From Allomuricauda sp. M10 (GTDB taxonomy: Bacteria; Bacteroidota; Bacteroidia; Flavobacteriales; Flavobacteriaceae), in contig NZ_JAJGBN010000001.1 of assembly GCF_020782875.1 (NCBI RefSeq), positions 372,001 to 436,000 of the forward strand: a stretch of DNA of 64,000 nucleotides, written 5' to 3'. The notes under the pieces are model-generated. The model searched no databases. It worked only from the letters and a program-made list of their open reading frames with translations, and had not been told where the DNA came from. The position numbers were made by a program, and so were the translations under genes. Below, piece by piece: positions 22,013 to 28,301 of this stretch. The first letter of the stretch is position 1, and every line of letters starts with the position of its first letter.

Positions 22013-23746
22013 TTATCTTTTCAACGAAAAATGGCCCTTGATTTCCTTGTTTTCCTCATTTACGGCCACAAACCAATAGTCTCCTGAAGGTAAAGGTCTG
22101 CCAGCGATCATGCCGTCCCAACCTTGCGAATTTTGTGAAATCTGCTTTAAAAATTTCCCGTATCGGTCAAAAATCCGAATGCTCTTGAGCACAATGGTCG
22201 ATGAATTCTGTGGTTGAATAAATTGCCAATAATCGTTGATCGTATCTCCATTTGGGGTAAAGAATTTTGGAAAACCTTCAACCGTAAGGTCCTGCGTAAA
22301 CACCCTTTGGGCCACGCCACATCCATTTTTGTCCCGGACATAAAAGGTATGGTCCCCAGGTTCCACGTTGCTGAAAATGTTGTTATCGGAGTATGGTCCA
22401 TTTTCATTATCGATGGCATATTCATAGGTGCCATTCCCGGTTGCGATGACCGTAACCTGAATTGTGGTGCCCGTATTTTGAACACGAAGGTCATCAATGG
22501 ATGCCAATTCGGAAGAAAGCACCTCGAACATTTTAGTGGACGGGCATTCCAGGGTTATCCCAAATTGACTGACGGTATTATATGCCTCGTATCGGTACAT
22601 CCCATTTTCGGTAATGGAAACTTCAGAAGTAGAGGATAACAGGGTCTCATCACCAAACTGATCTACTCTATACCATCGGTAGCCTTCGGCTATGTCAGTG
22701 GAAGAAATGACCAAAGGACCTTCATTTTCACAGGTCGAAAAGGAATCGGCTATATCAATTTCAGGATTTATGGTCACGTATTCCCCCGTATCAAAATCCA
22801 GATAAGGACCGCAACCGAGCAAAGTGGTAAAACTGGTTTGCGTACAACCTTCGGCTTGTCCGGCATCGTTAAACGGGACTATGGTGATAAAAAAGGTCTT
22901 GTTCGGTTCAAAATTGACAACTGGGGTTGAATTGTTGTAAAAAGTTGAACTGTTGAGAATATCCGAGCCATCCGGGGTTGTGCCGATGGTAACAATATAG
23001 CCAGTAGCATCTGGAACCGCAACCCATTCCAAAACTGGGGACAGCGGCACATTACTTTCCCCATCGGCCGGATATACGATAGAAGTACAATCCGGAATTT
23101 CCGATTCGGCCCGTGTAGTGAATTGCTGTGAGGTACATCCTACTGCAGTGCCCAACGCATTGTAGGGTACGATTGTGACGAAAATGGTAGTTTCGGTAGG
23201 CAAGTCGACAGGTGGATTAAAACTCAAAGTATTGCCGGCGTCATAATTGGAAAGAATATCCCCACCGCCAGCAGATGTTCCGATGCTTACCGTATACCCC
23301 GATGCCCCATATTGATAACCCCACGAAATGTTGGTACTAGGGTTTACATCTATCGCCATATCCAAAGGACTGGTCATCTGGGTGCAATTGGGCACACCTG
23401 ACAATGACTCCGTGGTAAAGACAAAGCTCGGACAGGTGATATTGGGTGCGTTAAAAAAGAATAAAGTAATGGTTGCATAAATAGTCGTGTTCGGAGGCAA
23501 GCCTAATGGAGGTTTATAAGCACTACTAGGAGCATACGCAGGAGACATAATATCAATTCCGCCTGGTGTAGTTCCCAAAGCAATATTGTAACTAGGAACC
23601 CCGTCCACGGTATCCCAATCAATGGTGGCATCGAGGGGTATTCCCGTAGCCCCATTAGTGGGATATACAATGTTGGGACATTCTTGGGCATGCGCCCAAT
23701 GCCCTAACAGGATAAGCATGCCTATGTAGAAAAGCTTGTTCAGCAT
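22013..23746 (-). CDS. T9SS type-B secreted protein with three Fn3-like repeats
   Basis: Secreted or cell-surface protein of 577 residues. The signal peptide spans about residues 1-20. Three ~95-residue Fn3-like repeats follow, each opening with a Cys-x4-(Y/S)P-x-(N/D)G-like segment and containing an (I/L)GTTPGG- or IGTSAGG-type turn. After a linker and an Ig-like region, the C-terminal ~85 residues form the gliding-motility-associated (CHU_C) sorting domain. Its marks are FPKFFTPNGDTINDYW, IRIFDRYGKFLKQI, GWDG and PSGDYWFV. The type IX secretion system recognises this domain. The ligand is unknown; repeats suggest adhesion or glycan binding. Confidence 0.92.
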   Translation of the reverse strand: MLNKLFYIGMLILLGHWAHAQECPNIVYPTNGATGIPLDATIDWDTVDGVPSYNIALGTTPGGIDIMSPAYAPSSAYKPPLGLPPNTTIYATITLFFFNAPNITCPSFVFTTESLSGVPNCTQMTSPLDMAIDVNPSTNISWGYQYGASGYTVSIGTSAGGGDILSNYDAGNTLSFNPPVDLPTETTIFVTIVPYNALGTAVGCTSQQFTTRAESEIPDCTSIVYPADGESNVPLSPVLEWVAVPDATGYIVTIGTTPDGSDILNSSTFYNNSTPVVNFEPNKTFFITIVPFNDAGQAEGCTQTSFTTLLGCGPYLDFDTGEYVTINPEIDIADSFSTCENEGPLVISSTDIAEGYRWYRVDQFGDETLLSSTSEVSITENGMYRYEAYNTVSQFGITLECPSTKMFEVLSSELASIDDLRVQNTGTTIQVTVIATGNGTYEYAIDNENGPYSDNNIFSNVEPGDHTFYVRDKNGCGVAQRVFTQDLTVEGFPKFFTPNGDTINDYWQFIQPQNSSTIVLKSIRIFDRYGKFLKQISQNSQGWDGMIAGRPLPSGDYWFVAVNEENKEIKGHFSLKR

Positions 23747-24619: not shown

Positions 24620-25516
24620 TTAGTTGTTTTTGGTCAAGGTTAAAAATTGTTCTTCAAGGCTTTCTTTTCGTTTTACCAAATGGGACAGGACGATACCTTT
24701 ATCAAACAGCATTTTGTTCAGGGATTCGGCGTCCATTTCTTCCTTCAAATAAGCGGTAAGGGTACCATTGAAACTTTCAATTTTTCCAAAACTGGCATTT
24801 TTTTCGAGCAAATCCTGTAGTTTATCCATCTGCACACATCGAAGTTCAAAAAAGCCATGGCTGGCCAACATGCTGTCCACAGGACCTGAATATAGGTTTT
24901 CACCCCTTCTCAAAATGACCACATGTGAGCACACCTTTTCCACTTCGTCCAACAAATGCGAAGCCAGTAGAATAGTGGTTCCTTGACTGGCAATGGTTTT
25001 AATGATTTCCCTAATTTGATGGATTCCTTGCGGATCCAAGCCGTTGGTAGGTTCATCCAAGATCAATATCTCAGGATCGTTCAGTAGGGCAGAGGCAATG
25101 GCCAAACGTTGCTTCATCCCCAGAGAATACGTCTTGAATTTGCTGTCCTTTCTTTCCCAAAGCCCGACCAGTTCCAATTTTTCCTGGATCTTGGTTTCGG
25201 GTACTTCCTTGATTTTACAGACCAGTTGAAGGTTTTGGATGGCAGTCATATAAGGGTAAAAGTTGGGTCGCTCAATAATGGCCCCTACTTTTTTCAATGC
25301 TTCGTGGGTGGTGGTATTGCCATCAAACCAACTGAATTCGCCGGAAGTTCGGTTGACCACGTTCAAAATAATGCCTAAAGTTGTGGACTTACCACTTCCG
25401 TTGGGCCCCAAAATGCCATACACATTTCCCTTTTCAATAGTGAAGGAAAGGTCGTTCACGGCAGTCAGGTAACCGAATTTCTTGGTGAGATGGTTAACGG
25501 TCAGAATTGTTTCCAA
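24620..25516 (-). CDS. ABC transporter ATP-binding protein (partner of 23775 permease)
   Basis: The 298-residue ATPase has Walker A GPNGSGKST (about residues 38-46), the signature YSLGMKQRLAIASALL, Walker B LILDEPTNGLD and the H-loop ASHLLDEVEKV. These mark the CcmA/NatA-like ABC-2 group. The only usable start is a TTG at 25516: an in-frame stop lies three codons upstream and no early ATG fits the family N-terminus. It is divergent from the kinase-like gene at 25595. Confidence 0.92.
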   Translation of the reverse strand: METILTVNHLTKKFGYLTAVNDLSFTIEKGNVYGILGPNGSGKSTTLGIILNVVNRTSGEFSWFDGNTTTHEALKKVGAIIERPNFYPYMTAIQNLQLVCKIKEVPETKIQEKLELVGLWERKDSKFKTYSLGMKQRLAIASALLNDPEILILDEPTNGLDPQGIHQIREIIKTIASQGTTILLASHLLDEVEKVCSHVVILRRGENLYSGPVDSMLASHGFFELRCVQMDKLQDLLEKNASFGKIESFNGTLTAYLKEEMDAESLNKMLFDKGIVLSHLVKRKESLEEQFLTLTKNN

Positions 25517-25594: not shown

Positions 25595-26671
25595 ATGTCC
25601 GAAGAAAAATTGATGTCCAAGAAAAAACCAGCCTACCCGGTCCATAAAAAATTGGATTCATACCTGCATCGGTACAATAGGAAGATAGAGATTCCTATTT
25701 TCTATGATGACCTTCTCCGTTTTGCCGGTTCTGTTGTGGTTTATGATGCGGATGGTGAGGATACGCTTTGGATTCGGGTCTACTATTCGGATTTTGATCG
25801 AAAGGAAATCGATTTGAGTTTGAAGCAAGTATATTCCATTTTACACTCCGATGGTAGCGATCGTATTTTGGAATATTTGAATGTGGATGCAGTGGATTTC
25901 TGCACTTTTGGAAACTCCAAACCGTTTCGGATCAAGGTTAGGAACATCTTGAATGACAACTATACGTATTTCTATGTGAAAAAGACCGATGCTTCCCGCA
26001 TCTATGGTTTGGAACTGGAGCATATGCTGTCACCGTACAACCTGAATTTTTTGGTCTACAAGGACACCCTTATAGAAGAGCATATTGCCGGCATCCCCGG
26101 AGATGTTTTTATACGGGATATACTCCCCAAGTGCTCCGAATCGGAAAAGGCACAACTGGCCAAGGAGTTCGTAAAATTCAATGAGCGTTGTATGATTCGT
26201 CTATTGGGAGACATGCGTTCCTATAATTATGTGATTGTCCCGGTTCACGATTTTGATCATGTGGTGTATAAGATCAGGGCCATCGACTTTGACCAGCAGT
26301 CGTTTGAAGGGAAATTGAAGGTGTACCGCCCCCAATTTTTCAAGGAAAACTATAAAATGGTCGAATTGGTTCGGGCCAAATTGCAAAAAGATTCAGTAGA
26401 TCAATACAAAATAGAGGAACGCTCCATAGTGGCCAAACGTATTTTGAGCTCAGGAAACCGTATTCGACGATTGTTATCCGCTGTAAAACCGGACACCATT
26501 TCACTGCCCGAGAACATAGAAAAGTTGAAGCTTGAAATTTACGACCTTACCAAAGACATGGAATTTAAAAGAAGTTCCACTATGGGTGAGGTGTTGGCAC
26601 TTGCGCTGGATTTTGTGAAACGAAACTACCAAGACGTGAGCATGAAACAGATCATAGAGAAGAAGTTCTAA
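25595..26671 (+). CDS. Divergent kinase-like protein, unassigned family
   Basis: I do not recognise a named family in this 358-residue soluble protein, but the order of residues matches a protein-kinase/APH fold. A strand YFYVKK (Lys129-Lys130) could be the ATP-binding lysine strand, followed by Glu140-Glu142 in a helix and a hinge-like LIEEHIAGIPGD (residues 159-170). A catalytic-loop pattern GDMRSYN (Asp206, four residues, Asn211) comes next, then a metal-binding IDFD (Asp231, Asp233). The C-terminal ~110 residues are helical and basic. It overlaps the convergent nucleoid-protein gene by 4 nt. Kinase activity is inferred only. Confidence 0.65.
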   Translation: MSEEKLMSKKKPAYPVHKKLDSYLHRYNRKIEIPIFYDDLLRFAGSVVVYDADGEDTLWIRVYYSDFDRKEIDLSLKQVYSILHSDGSDRILEYLNVDAVDFCTFGNSKPFRIKVRNILNDNYTYFYVKKTDASRIYGLELEHMLSPYNLNFLVYKDTLIEEHIAGIPGDVFIRDILPKCSESEKAQLAKEFVKFNERCMIRLLGDMRSYNYVIVPVHDFDHVVYKIRAIDFDQQSFEGKLKVYRPQFFKENYKMVELVRAKLQKDSVDQYKIEERSIVAKRILSSGNRIRRLLSAVKPDTISLPENIEKLKLEIYDLTKDMEFKRSSTMGEVLALALDFVKRNYQDVSMKQIIEKKF

Positions 26672-27726
26672 CTCTTCTGTTCTTTGTTGAAATACACCAG
26701 GTAATAGTACATTTGGCGTTCTTCGTCCCAACCTTTTTCCACAAATTTTTCCGCAGATTCCGGGTTGATGAAATCCAGTTTAATTTGGATATTGGTATCC
26801 AAATTGATGACATTCTTGATCTTTCTTCTGGCGTCGCTCACCGCTTTATTGGCAATATCGAAGTTGGAAACATCCTCAATGCTGTATTTCGGTCCTTTTT
26901 CCACTTTGTAATGTTTGAACTCGGGGATCAATTCCGGGTTTTCCATCACGTCGTTCAAAAAGGCAGTTTCCTCAAACGCGTCGTTTTTAGCAAAATGGTT
27001 CACCGCTCGGTTCATGAACAAAACTTCCTGTTGTTTGTCCTCGGCAGGTAAAACCACATCCTTGGCAAAGTTCTGGCAGAATTTCAGGTAGTTTTTGGTG
27101 TAGAAATTCTCATCGGTCAAGGGAATCAATCCCAAAAAGTTTTCCAACCAATATTTGGCGTCGTAGCGGTTACTGTCCACTGACAACACTTTGTAACCTT
27201 CCTCTTTTTCCACATTGAAGACAATACAGCCCTTATCAAGTTTGTTGACATTGATGCCTTGTTTGATCAATATTTCCAGATTTTGTTCCGTTTCCTTGAA
27301 CTGAAGAAAATCGTGTTTCAACTCACTTTTAAAAATACCTACAGCATCTGTTTTCTTGTTGTCGATGACCACATCCGAAAAATGAACCACGTACACCTCT
27401 CCACTTTTGATATGCGGATGGTTGGATTGATCATAAAGGTATTGGGTAATCTTTTTGGAAAGTTCGTGTCCGTTGGCCGGGTTCTCGAATATGCCGGATA
27501 CAGCGGTGAACACATCGTTGAACTCCACGTCCACATCATTGGCAAATCTGTAATAGTTCTCCTCTTTTTCCCTGAACGGCCTGAAAAAATATTCTTTGAG
27601 CAAGCCCGCCATTTCATCGTTCAAAGTGAAGGGTTCCGAGGATAAAAACGCAGCTTCGTTCTTGCTTTTGTTTCCTACTCGGTGGAGTGAAAGACTTTCG
27701 ATTTGGGCAGTATATAGGTTTAGCAT
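26668..27726 (-). CDS. 37-kDa nucleoid-associated protein (NdpA/YejK-like)
   Basis: The 352-residue product is of the NdpA/YejK family, which binds the nucleoid; the exact role is unknown. Supporting features are the N-terminal IESLSLHRVGNKSKNEAAFLSSEPF, the centre SGEVYVVHFSDVVIDNKKTDAVGIFKSE and the ending INPESAEKFVEKGWDEERQMYYYLVYF. It converges on the kinase-like gene and lies downstream of the ORF-3-like gene at 27789, 62 nt away. Confidence 0.85.
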   Translation of the reverse strand: MLNLYTAQIESLSLHRVGNKSKNEAAFLSSEPFTLNDEMAGLLKEYFFRPFREKEENYYRFANDVDVEFNDVFTAVSGIFENPANGHELSKKITQYLYDQSNHPHIKSGEVYVVHFSDVVIDNKKTDAVGIFKSELKHDFLQFKETEQNLEILIKQGINVNKLDKGCIVFNVEKEEGYKVLSVDSNRYDAKYWLENFLGLIPLTDENFYTKNYLKFCQNFAKDVVLPAEDKQQEVLFMNRAVNHFAKNDAFEETAFLNDVMENPELIPEFKHYKVEKGPKYSIEDVSNFDIANKAVSDARRKIKNVINLDTNIQIKLDFINPESAEKFVEKGWDEERQMYYYLVYFNKEQKS

Positions 27727-27788: not shown

Positions 27789-28301
27789 TTAATTCCAATT
27801 TTCATCAAAATCCATATCATCGTAACTGTCGAGAAAGTCGTCATCTTCATCAAAGTTGTCTTCCAACTCGCCTTCCTCAGCCTCAAAATTTTTCTCAGGC
27901 GGCGAATCGGGCAATTCCCCAAAACTGAACAATAAACGTGGGTAAACAGCACCGTCTTCTTTTTCTACGATATCTGCCAACTCCACAAAAAAGGTCCACA
28001 TGCTGAAAAAATCGTACACATAGATCAATTTTGGTGTCTGTTCGGTAAGCACGTCATCCAAACCGGTCTCGTTCATCAACCGCACTTCGGAACCACTGTC
28101 GCTCATGTCAAAAAGGGCTATTTCCTCATCTTGGTTCCATTCTTCGTCACAGGTGTAAAAAGAAGCCATTTCTCCACCTTCAAAACCAAAGGCCTGGGTT
28201 ATGGCATTGTGTAATTCTTCTAAAGTATTGTTGTCCTCAATCTCGATATCCCTGAAGATATCTTCCTCAGCATCAAGTATTATCCTGATTTTATAAATCA
28301 T
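27789..28301 (-). CDS. Plasmid pRiA4b ORF-3-like protein
   Basis: The 170-residue product has the ORF-3-like beta-grasp fold: an opening strand YKIRIILD, then NTLEELHNAITQAFGFEGGEMASFY and the later YVYDFFSMWTFFVELADI. The C-terminal ~45 residues are strongly acidic (stretches such as DEDDDFLDSYDDMDFDENWN). Databases also label this family IS1096 passenger TnpR, but no transposon ends or transposase are near. Function unknown. Confidence 0.8.
   Translation of the reverse strand: MIYKIRIILDAEEDIFRDIEIEDNNTLEELHNAITQAFGFEGGEMASFYTCDEEWNQDEEIALFDMSDSGSEVRLMNETGLDDVLTEQTPKLIYVYDFFSMWTFFVELADIVEKEDGAVYPRLLFSFGELPDSPPEKNFEAEEGELEDNFDEDDDFLDSYDDMDFDENWN

What the first reader, a model, noticed from the sequence alone, without database searches (positions are those of the whole stretch)
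25595..26671. Divergent kinase-like fold in an unassigned 358-residue protein
The protein has the order of a protein-kinase/APH fold: lysine strand YFYVKK (Lys129-130), acidic helix Glu140-142, hinge-like EEHIAGIPGD, catalytic loop D-x4-N (Asp206-Asn211) and metal-site IDFD (Asp231-Asp233). The glycine-rich loop is not evident, and the N-terminal 100 residues and the basic C-terminal helices are novel. The gene abuts and overlaps a nucleoid-associated protein gene, suggesting a possible nucleoid or stress link.
Basis: inference. Interest (0 to 1): 0.6.

Follow-up and report, generated by a model that had tools for sequence, protein, structure and literature searches.

The report
Unnamed bacterial kinase-fold protein family
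A bacterial protein that the family libraries searched do not recognise is predicted to fold like a kinase, with its active site unchanged in every relative examined; it is probably an enzyme that transfers phosphate to a target not yet identified.

Summary
The ORF 25595-26671 (+, 358 aa) is single-copy in its genome, with matches in 99 of 395 sampled genomes of its phylum. No Pfam or NCBIfam model matches it. K129, E142, D206, N211, D231 and D233 are identical in 174 of 174 aligned rows. AlphaFold2 (pLDDT 84.6) puts them where a protein-kinase-like (PKL) fold needs them. The 50 listed Foldseek PDB matches are all kinases or pseudokinases. VIA-align 2 ranks PI3K/PI4K enzymes above protein kinases: Vps34 Z 11.1, core 9.2. 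An invariant K-x2-D-x2-R at the ATP lysine is shared with Vps34, p110-gamma and PI4K-beta, and absent from the HipA and Pkinase sets tested. No profile comparison with any kinase family is significant, so PI3K kinship is unproven. The NdpA link is unsupported: that gene is convergent and was not found in 32 of 80 loci. In a distant clade the gene follows bshA (bacillithiol synthesis) in 13 of 17 loci. Best reading: an active, vertically inherited kinase of an unnamed PKL family, substrate unknown.

The parts
25595..26671 (+). kinase-like gene, 358 aa (single copy in this genome)
25595..25855 (+). N-terminal extension, residues 1-87 (helices 18-26, 37-41, 66-84; strand 59-63), with invariant K11, Y23, L24, R29, Y80
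25856..26635 (+). kinase core, residues 88-347, the same length in all 73 rows of A2
25901..25930 (+). loop between strands 1 and 2 (residues 103-112, C-TFGNSKPF-R), in the place of the glycine-rich loop
25979..25999 (+). K129-x2-D132-x2-R135: ATP lysine at the end of strand 3 and following motif, all three invariant
26018..26020 (+). E142, on the helix after strand 3 (alpha-C position)
26075..26098 (+). hinge-like E161-E-H-I-A-G-I-P168
26210..26227 (+). catalytic loop D206-M-R-S-Y-N211
26285..26299 (+). metal site D231-F-D-Q-Q235
26300..26335 (+). segment after the metal site (residues 236-247) with invariant Y244 and near-invariant P246, Q247; mostly low confidence in the core model; candidate substrate-binding loop (inference)
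26668..27726 (-). 37-kD nucleoid-associated protein gene (NA37), convergent neighbour with a 4-base overlap; not part of the system on present evidence
24620..25516 (-). ABC-transporter ATPase gene, divergent neighbour (label from reading the sequence and recall)

Best explanation
The gene encodes an active, soluble ATP-dependent phosphotransferase of the PKL fold, from a family missing from the Pfam and NCBIfam copies searched. Mg-ATP would be held by K129 (tied to E142), the 103-112 loop, N211 and D231, with D206 as catalytic base; that assignment follows from fold position and invariance. The family has mostly been passed down vertically in Bacteroidota. Its catalytic core resembles the PI3K/PI4K type more than the classical protein-kinase type: short segment after the metal site, no APE segment apparent, K-x2-D-x2-R after the ATP lysine. 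The substrate is unknown. I think a soluble metabolite or a protein is more likely than a lipid. The only recurrent gene pairing with a named pathway, to bshA in one deep clade, points to thiol/redox metabolism. Shown by computation: predicted fold, invariant residues, distribution, bshA pairing. Inferred: catalysis, solubility, substrate class, pathway.
For: Confident model with the order b1-b2-b3-alphaC-b4-b5-hinge-alphaD-alphaE-catalytic loop-b7-b8-DFD; core alone pLDDT 82.2. The 50 listed PDB matches of each model are kinase or pseudokinase entries, best E 2.6e-4 and 2.6e-5. VIA-align 2: Vps34 Z 11.1, 277 residues, 4.9 A; core Z 9.2, 221 residues, 4.6 A, against at most 7.5 for protein kinases in the list. 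Catalytic residues invariant, 174 of 174. The gene tree mostly follows taxonomy: 20 label changes where 19 is the minimum. bshA directly upstream and co-directional in 13 of 17 loci of one clade, aligned gaps 14-149 nt; one of these bshA proteins scores 553 bits to TIGR03999.
Against: No profile comparison links it to a kinase family: hhalign E 0.086 (HipA), 0.32 (APH), 0.23 (Pkinase), 0.13 (PI3K/PI4K). Foldseek TM-scores are low (0.20-0.40) with large rmsd (9.9-20.9 A). The model rests on homologues at least 67% identical, and the core model has pLDDT under 50 at residues 203-205 and 233-246, beside the catalytic loop and at the metal site. The bshA pairing is seen in one clade only, bshA is present throughout the phylum so presence/absence gives no support, and neighbours differ elsewhere.
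Confidence: 0.78

Rival explanations
1. (Divides the substrate question inside the best explanation.) It is a bacterial branch of the PI3K/PI4K lineage and phosphorylates a lipid head group or inositol-like compound at the membrane.
For: All 50 listed VIA-align 2 rows for the whole model are PI3K/PI4K entries, and Vps34 leads for the core. K-x2-D-x2-R at the ATP lysine is shared with three PI3K/PI4K enzymes and absent at the aligned lysine in 24 HipA and 19 Pkinase rows. hhalign keeps register from the catalytic loop on for 106 columns.
Against: The hhalign score is not significant (E 0.13), and HipA scores slightly better (0.086). PF00454 finds nothing in 148 genomes of the phylum; 16 of the 20 listed there carry this gene. 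HipA and APH structures may not have been among the 1000 chains compared. No hydrophobic membrane segment is apparent on reading the sequence (no predictor run).
Confidence: 0.2
2. (Divides the substrate question inside the best explanation.) It is a small-molecule kinase of the APH/choline-kinase type acting on a metabolite, perhaps a sugar or thiol compound.
For: GD-x4-N and IDFD resemble APH motifs (recalled; the APH set here has H-x-D and IDF in its consensus). The hinge resembles APH hinges (recalled). Co-directional pairing with bshA, a sugar-malate synthase. hhalign against APH pairs the two catalytic loops.
Against: hhalign against 16 APH proteins E 0.32 over 28 columns. No Pfam match. 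APH is not among the listed structural matches, which is inconclusive.
Confidence: 0.3
3. It is a HipA-type protein kinase that has diverged beyond recognition.
For: HipA gave the lowest hhalign E of the four families tried, 0.086, with the two catalytic loops in register.
Against: Not significant. The D-x-H of the HipA catalytic loop and its Y-D metal site are D-x-R and F-D here. With the shallower core alignment the HipA match moved to an unrelated place (E 0.38).
Confidence: 0.08
4. It is a pseudokinase: it keeps the fold and binds nucleotide but works as a scaffold or sensor.
For: Atypical nucleotide loop. Strong conservation in non-catalytic places such as K190, F192, F195, Q270.
Against: The catalytic residues are invariant in 174 of 174 rows, which pseudokinases usually do not keep.
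Confidence: 0.08
5. It works with the neighbouring nucleoid-associated protein in a nucleoid or stress function.
For: Within 700 nt in 39 of 80 named loci.
Against: Convergent orientation, so not one transcript; the NdpA-like gene was not found in 32 of 80 loci that keep the kinase gene; different neighbours in other families.
Confidence: 0.04

Closest known systems
Class III PI3-kinase Vps34, PI4K-III-beta and p110 (PI3_PI4_kinase, PF00454)
   Same: Nearest solved folds among those compared (Z 11.1 and 10.9; core Z 9.2 for Vps34). K-x2-D-x2-R after the ATP lysine, D-x4-N catalytic loop (preceded by G in Vps34 and p110-gamma), IDF metal site.
   Different: No significant profile match. DRH replaced by DMR; DFG replaced by DFD; no Q-[DE] after the R; D206 to D231 is 25 residues, against 18 in Vps34. 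One 358-aa chain, against the 594-1102-aa Vps34 and p110 chains listed.
HipA kinases (PF07804)
   Same: D-x4-N catalytic loop; bacterial. Lowest hhalign E of the four families tried (0.086, not significant).
   Different: No Pfam match. Lacks the D-x-H and Y-D of the HipA set. A HipB-like partner was not searched for.
Aminoglycoside/choline phosphotransferase superfamily (APH, PF01636)
   Same: Short kinase with an IDF metal site (consensus).
   Different: No Pfam match; hhalign E 0.32.
Novel PKL families of the Legionella pan-kinome, e.g. Lani_1194 with Flavobacteriales homologues (PMC9758233, passages read)
   Same: Uncharacterised PKL families supported by structure prediction; one is reported in Flavobacteriales.
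   Different: [quoted passage not shown] here K129 is invariant. Sequences were not compared.

Membership tests
Protein-kinase-like (PKL) fold superfamily | Two-lobed fold with five-stranded N-lobe, alpha-C helix and helical C-lobe | tested here: met
   AlphaFold2 element order; kinases or pseudokinases in all 50 listed matches. A prediction, not a solved structure
Protein-kinase-like (PKL) fold superfamily | ATP lysine, alpha-C acid, catalytic Asp, metal Asn and Asp in the right places and conserved | tested here: met
   K129, E142, D206, N211, D231 invariant 174/174 at the expected elements
Protein-kinase-like (PKL) fold superfamily | Phosphotransferase activity | not testable with these tools
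   -
PI3_PI4_kinase (PF00454) | Profile match over the curated cut-off | tested here: not met
   no Pfam match to P0001; 0 of 148 genomes
PI3_PI4_kinase (PF00454) | K-x2-D-D-L-R-Q-[DE] motif at the ATP lysine | tested here: not met
   K-x2-D-x2-R present, second D, L and Q-[DE] absent; the motif is read off three solved-structure sequences
PI3_PI4_kinase (PF00454) | Closest structural neighbours | tested here: inconclusive
   best of the chains compared, but other PKL families may not have been in the compared set
HipA (PF07804) | Profile match | tested here: not met
HipA (PF07804) | Structural similarity | tested here: inconclusive
   no HipA chain listed
APH (PF01636) | Profile match | tested here: not met
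APH (PF01636) | Structural similarity | tested here: inconclusive
   no APH chain listed
Classical protein kinases (PF00069) | Profile match; GxGxxG loop; DFG | tested here: not met
   loop and DFD
CotH / Fam20 | Fold and motif match | not tested
   no Pfam match of any kind; no comparison aimed at them

The most novel reading that the evidence does not exclude
Bacteroidota carry an ancestral, normally single-copy PI3K/PI4K-type kinase, a bacterial sister of the eukaryotic lipid-kinase/PIKK lineage, that regulates bacillithiol-dependent redox metabolism; the invariant C103 beside the nucleotide loop would act as its thiol switch.
Probability: 0.08. Interest if true: 0.85.

Novelty: new variant of a known kind. 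Interest (0 to 1): 0.5.

Why it matters
A kinase family conserved across at least two classes of an abundant phylum is absent from the family libraries searched here, so its members are likely to be annotated only as hypothetical. Its active site is fully conserved, so activity is easy to test. If the PI3K-like resemblance is real, it bears on where lipid kinases and PIK-related kinases came from. The bshA pairing offers a first physiological lead. The window genome itself shows no PF00454, PF07804 or PF01636 match and only two sub-cut-off PF00069 matches on other contigs, so this may be one of its few kinase-fold enzymes; other kinase families were not searched for.

Tried and rejected
Nucleoid link: rejected on orientation and on the absence of the neighbour from 32 of 80 loci. 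Defence or mobile function: PADLOC had no match, PHROGs only one at E 0.3, plasmids and phages none by tblastn, and viral contigs no relative among 88 pattern matches. Co-occurrence with bshA: uninformative, because a TIGR03999 match is found in 395 of 395 genomes, 379 over the cut-off. Sequence kinship to HipA, APH, Pkinase and PI3K/PI4K by hhalign: none significant. HipA had the lowest E (0.086). The core alignment A6, which is shallower, gave E 0.74, 0.38 and 0.28 against PI3K/PI4K, HipA and APH, without a sensible register. HipA against PI3K/PI4K, as a control, scored about the same (E 0.15), so the method cannot separate these families here. HipA, APH, CotH and Fam20 do not appear among the listed structural matches; that absence proves nothing. 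Pfam scan of 53 relatives: weak scattered matches only, best E 0.0011 (25 of 30 families shown), no kinase family among those shown. Profile search of PDB sequences: no match at E up to 10. The viral structure library: the six matches with E up to 0.001 are Ser/Thr protein kinases, best E 3.4e-5. Eight literature searches, of which I saw listings and passages of two papers, showed no description of this family; most subscription papers and bioRxiv preprints are outside that library.

Rows dropped: A1 has 52 of the 59 thinned rows plus the query (L001, L005, L008, L029, L033, L079, L085 left out). A2 has 72 of 80 named loci, A6 67 of 80. A3 uses 24 of 30 HipA loci, A4 16 of 30 APH loci, A5 19 of 24 Pkinase loci. 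The 17 loci of the distant clade are 17 of the 28 such genomes, chosen by me. The 632-aa ORF in L079 is probably a false upstream extension, as bshA lies just there on the same strand.

Full report
THE OBSERVATION. The ORF 25595-26671 (+) encodes 358 aa. It has no listed match in Pfam or NCBIfam at E up to 10 (HMMER's filters drop most matches above about 0.1), none in PADLOC and one at E 0.3 in PHROGs. The only PDB sequence match is weak (supervillin, E 0.53). Matches are present in 25 of 39 near genomes and 99 of 395 genomes sampled from the phylum, one of the 99 being a 42-residue fragment. The gene is single-copy in the window's genome.

CONSERVATION. In 174 aligned rows (the query plus 173 loci; near-copies and some repeated genomes included, the window gene twice) 35 of 358 positions are invariant. 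They include K129, D132, R135, E142, E161, H163, G166, G205, D206, N211, D231, F232, D233 and Q234. The catalytic positions are also invariant in a thinned set of 59. Away from the kinase motifs, C103, N107, P110, R112, K190, Y244, N252, Q270 and M330 are also invariant.

STRUCTURE. AlphaFold2, on the window protein with 72 named relatives, gave mean pLDDT 84.6 and pTM 0.83. The order is strand 95-103, loop, strand 111-117, strand 122-130 with K129, helix 133-145 with E142, strands 152-155 and 158-162, hinge, helices 169-179 and 182-206, catalytic loop D206-N211, hairpin 211-219/222-230, D231-F-D233, then helices to residue 345 and a low-confidence tail. That is the PKL order. There is little room for a classical activation loop and APE segment, since a helix starts at 241. 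The core alone (residues 88-347) gave pLDDT 82.2 and pTM 0.75, with pLDDT under 50 at residues 203-205 and 233-246; the second is the likely mobile substrate loop (inference).

STRUCTURAL NEIGHBOURS. Foldseek's 50 listed PDB matches are kinases or pseudokinases for both the whole protein and the core, best E 2.6e-4 and 2.6e-5, with 13 and 261 matches at E up to 0.001. TM-scores are low (0.20-0.40) and rmsd large, so the fold is divergent. VIA-align 2 on Foldseek's top 1000 chains put PI3K/PI4K entries in all 50 listed rows for the whole model (Vps34 Z 11.1, 277 aligned, 4.9 A; PI4K-beta Z 10.9, 259 aligned, 4.6 A). For the core, five Vps34 entries scored Z 8.2-9.2 over 216-222 of 260 residues; protein kinases followed at 7.5 or less over at most 179 residues in the rows listed. 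HipA, APH and others may never have been in the compared set, so this ranks PI3K above classical kinases but not above all PKL families.

MOTIF COMPARISON. Letters of Vps34, p110-gamma and PI4K-beta were checked against solved structures and aligned. All three have K-x2-D-D-L-R-Q-[DE] at the ATP lysine; the present family has K129-x2-D132-x2-R135, invariant. None of 24 HipA or 19 Pkinase rows has D/E at +3 with R at +6 after its aligned lysine, and none of 16 APH rows contains K-x2-D-x2-R anywhere; 3 of 24 HipA rows contain it somewhere. The catalytic loop is GD-x4-N here and in Vps34 and p110-gamma (KD-x4-N in PI4K-beta). The second D and the Q after R of the PI3K motif are absent. Profile-profile comparison with these three sequences gave E 0.13, in register from the catalytic loop on for 106 columns; Vps34 alone gave 0.3. 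HipA gave 0.086, with the catalytic loops paired; APH 0.32, catalytic loops paired; Pkinase 0.23 at an unrelated place; a HipA-PI3K control 0.15. None is significant. Homology beyond the fold is therefore not shown, and by sequence HipA is no worse a candidate than PI3K.

GENE HISTORY. A tree of 59 rows mostly follows taxonomy: 20 label changes where 19 is the minimum, with a shuffled mean of 36.8. Families f1, f44, f52, f23, f19 and f24 each form one side of a branch; f22, f18 and f17 do not. The gene thus looks mostly inherited vertically and lost in many lineages. It was not found on mobile elements: no match in 72,556 plasmid or 50,697 phage records and no relative in viral contigs. One genome has two copies, one on a very long branch.

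NEIGHBOURHOOD. In the window the gene lies between a divergent ABC-transporter gene and a convergent NdpA gene. In 80 named loci an NdpA-like gene was found in 48, convergent in all 48, and within 700 nt in 39 (some loci are truncated). In the more distant clade (same phylum, other class; 17 loci taken from the 28 such genomes) bshA lies directly upstream and co-directional in 13 loci from 7 of 9 families, with aligned gaps of 14-149 nt; L070, L083, L084 and L085 lack it. None of the other 156 loci shows it, but 54 of those hold only about 1.5 kb of flank. One of these bshA proteins scores 553 bits to TIGR03999 (cut-off 273.7). A TIGR03999 match occurs in 395 of 395 genomes (379 over the cut-off), so presence/absence cannot test the link. 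In other families the neighbours differ, for example a fructose-bisphosphate aldolase (label recalled from the sequence), flavodoxin and RseC.

HOW IT LIKELY WORKS. Inference from the PKL fold: ATP sits between the lobes under the 103-112 loop. K129 holds the phosphates with help from E142. N211 and D231 bind magnesium. D206 activates the acceptor hydroxyl. The 234-247 segment with Y244-x-P246-Q247 probably shapes the acceptor site. The acceptor is unknown. The bshA pairing and the invariant C103 next to the nucleotide loop suggest, but do not show, a role in thiol/redox metabolism.

PUBLISHED WORK. Passages of the Legionella pan-kinome survey (PMC9758233) show that new PKL families are still being found with the help of structure prediction, and that one (Lani_1194) has Flavobacteriales homologues; its catalytic lysine is reported as R, unlike here. 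Passages of the SELO paper (PMC3281104) give a precedent for assigning a new PKL family by predicted fold. The searches listed under Tried and rejected showed no paper on this family.

VERDICT. The kinase-fold call is right as far as prediction can say, and the family is real, conserved and unnamed in the libraries searched. The nucleoid idea is not supported. PI3K likeness is the most interesting lead and is unproven.

Noticed in passing
L065, L068, L072, L073, L074, L076, L078, L079, L080, L082, L086, L091, L092: bshA (bacillithiol synthesis) lies directly upstream, same strand, of the kinase-like gene in 13 of 17 loci of one deep clade.
   Followed up: partly
L087 and L088 (genome G128): One genome carries two copies of the gene; the copy in L087 is on a very long branch (3.09 changes per column) yet keeps the catalytic residues.
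   Followed up: no
L089 (genome G286): Only a 42-residue stretch matches the family (43% identity, with a stop inside), perhaps a decayed remnant.
   Followed up: no
window genome G000: No HipA_C, APH or PI3_PI4_kinase match and only two sub-cut-off Pkinase matches on other contigs, so few recognisable kinase-fold proteins of these families.
   Followed up: no
window 27789-28301 (-): Gene next to the NdpA gene; a relative was found near the kinase-like gene in 65 of 80 named loci, more often than NdpA itself (48 of 80). I labelled it pRiA4-like from recall.
   Followed up: no
window 22013-23746 (-): 577-aa repeat protein with a C-terminal part like those of gliding/secretion systems (CHU_C label from recall), next to an ABC exporter pair; relatives were found near the gene in 41 of 80 loci.
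   Followed up: no
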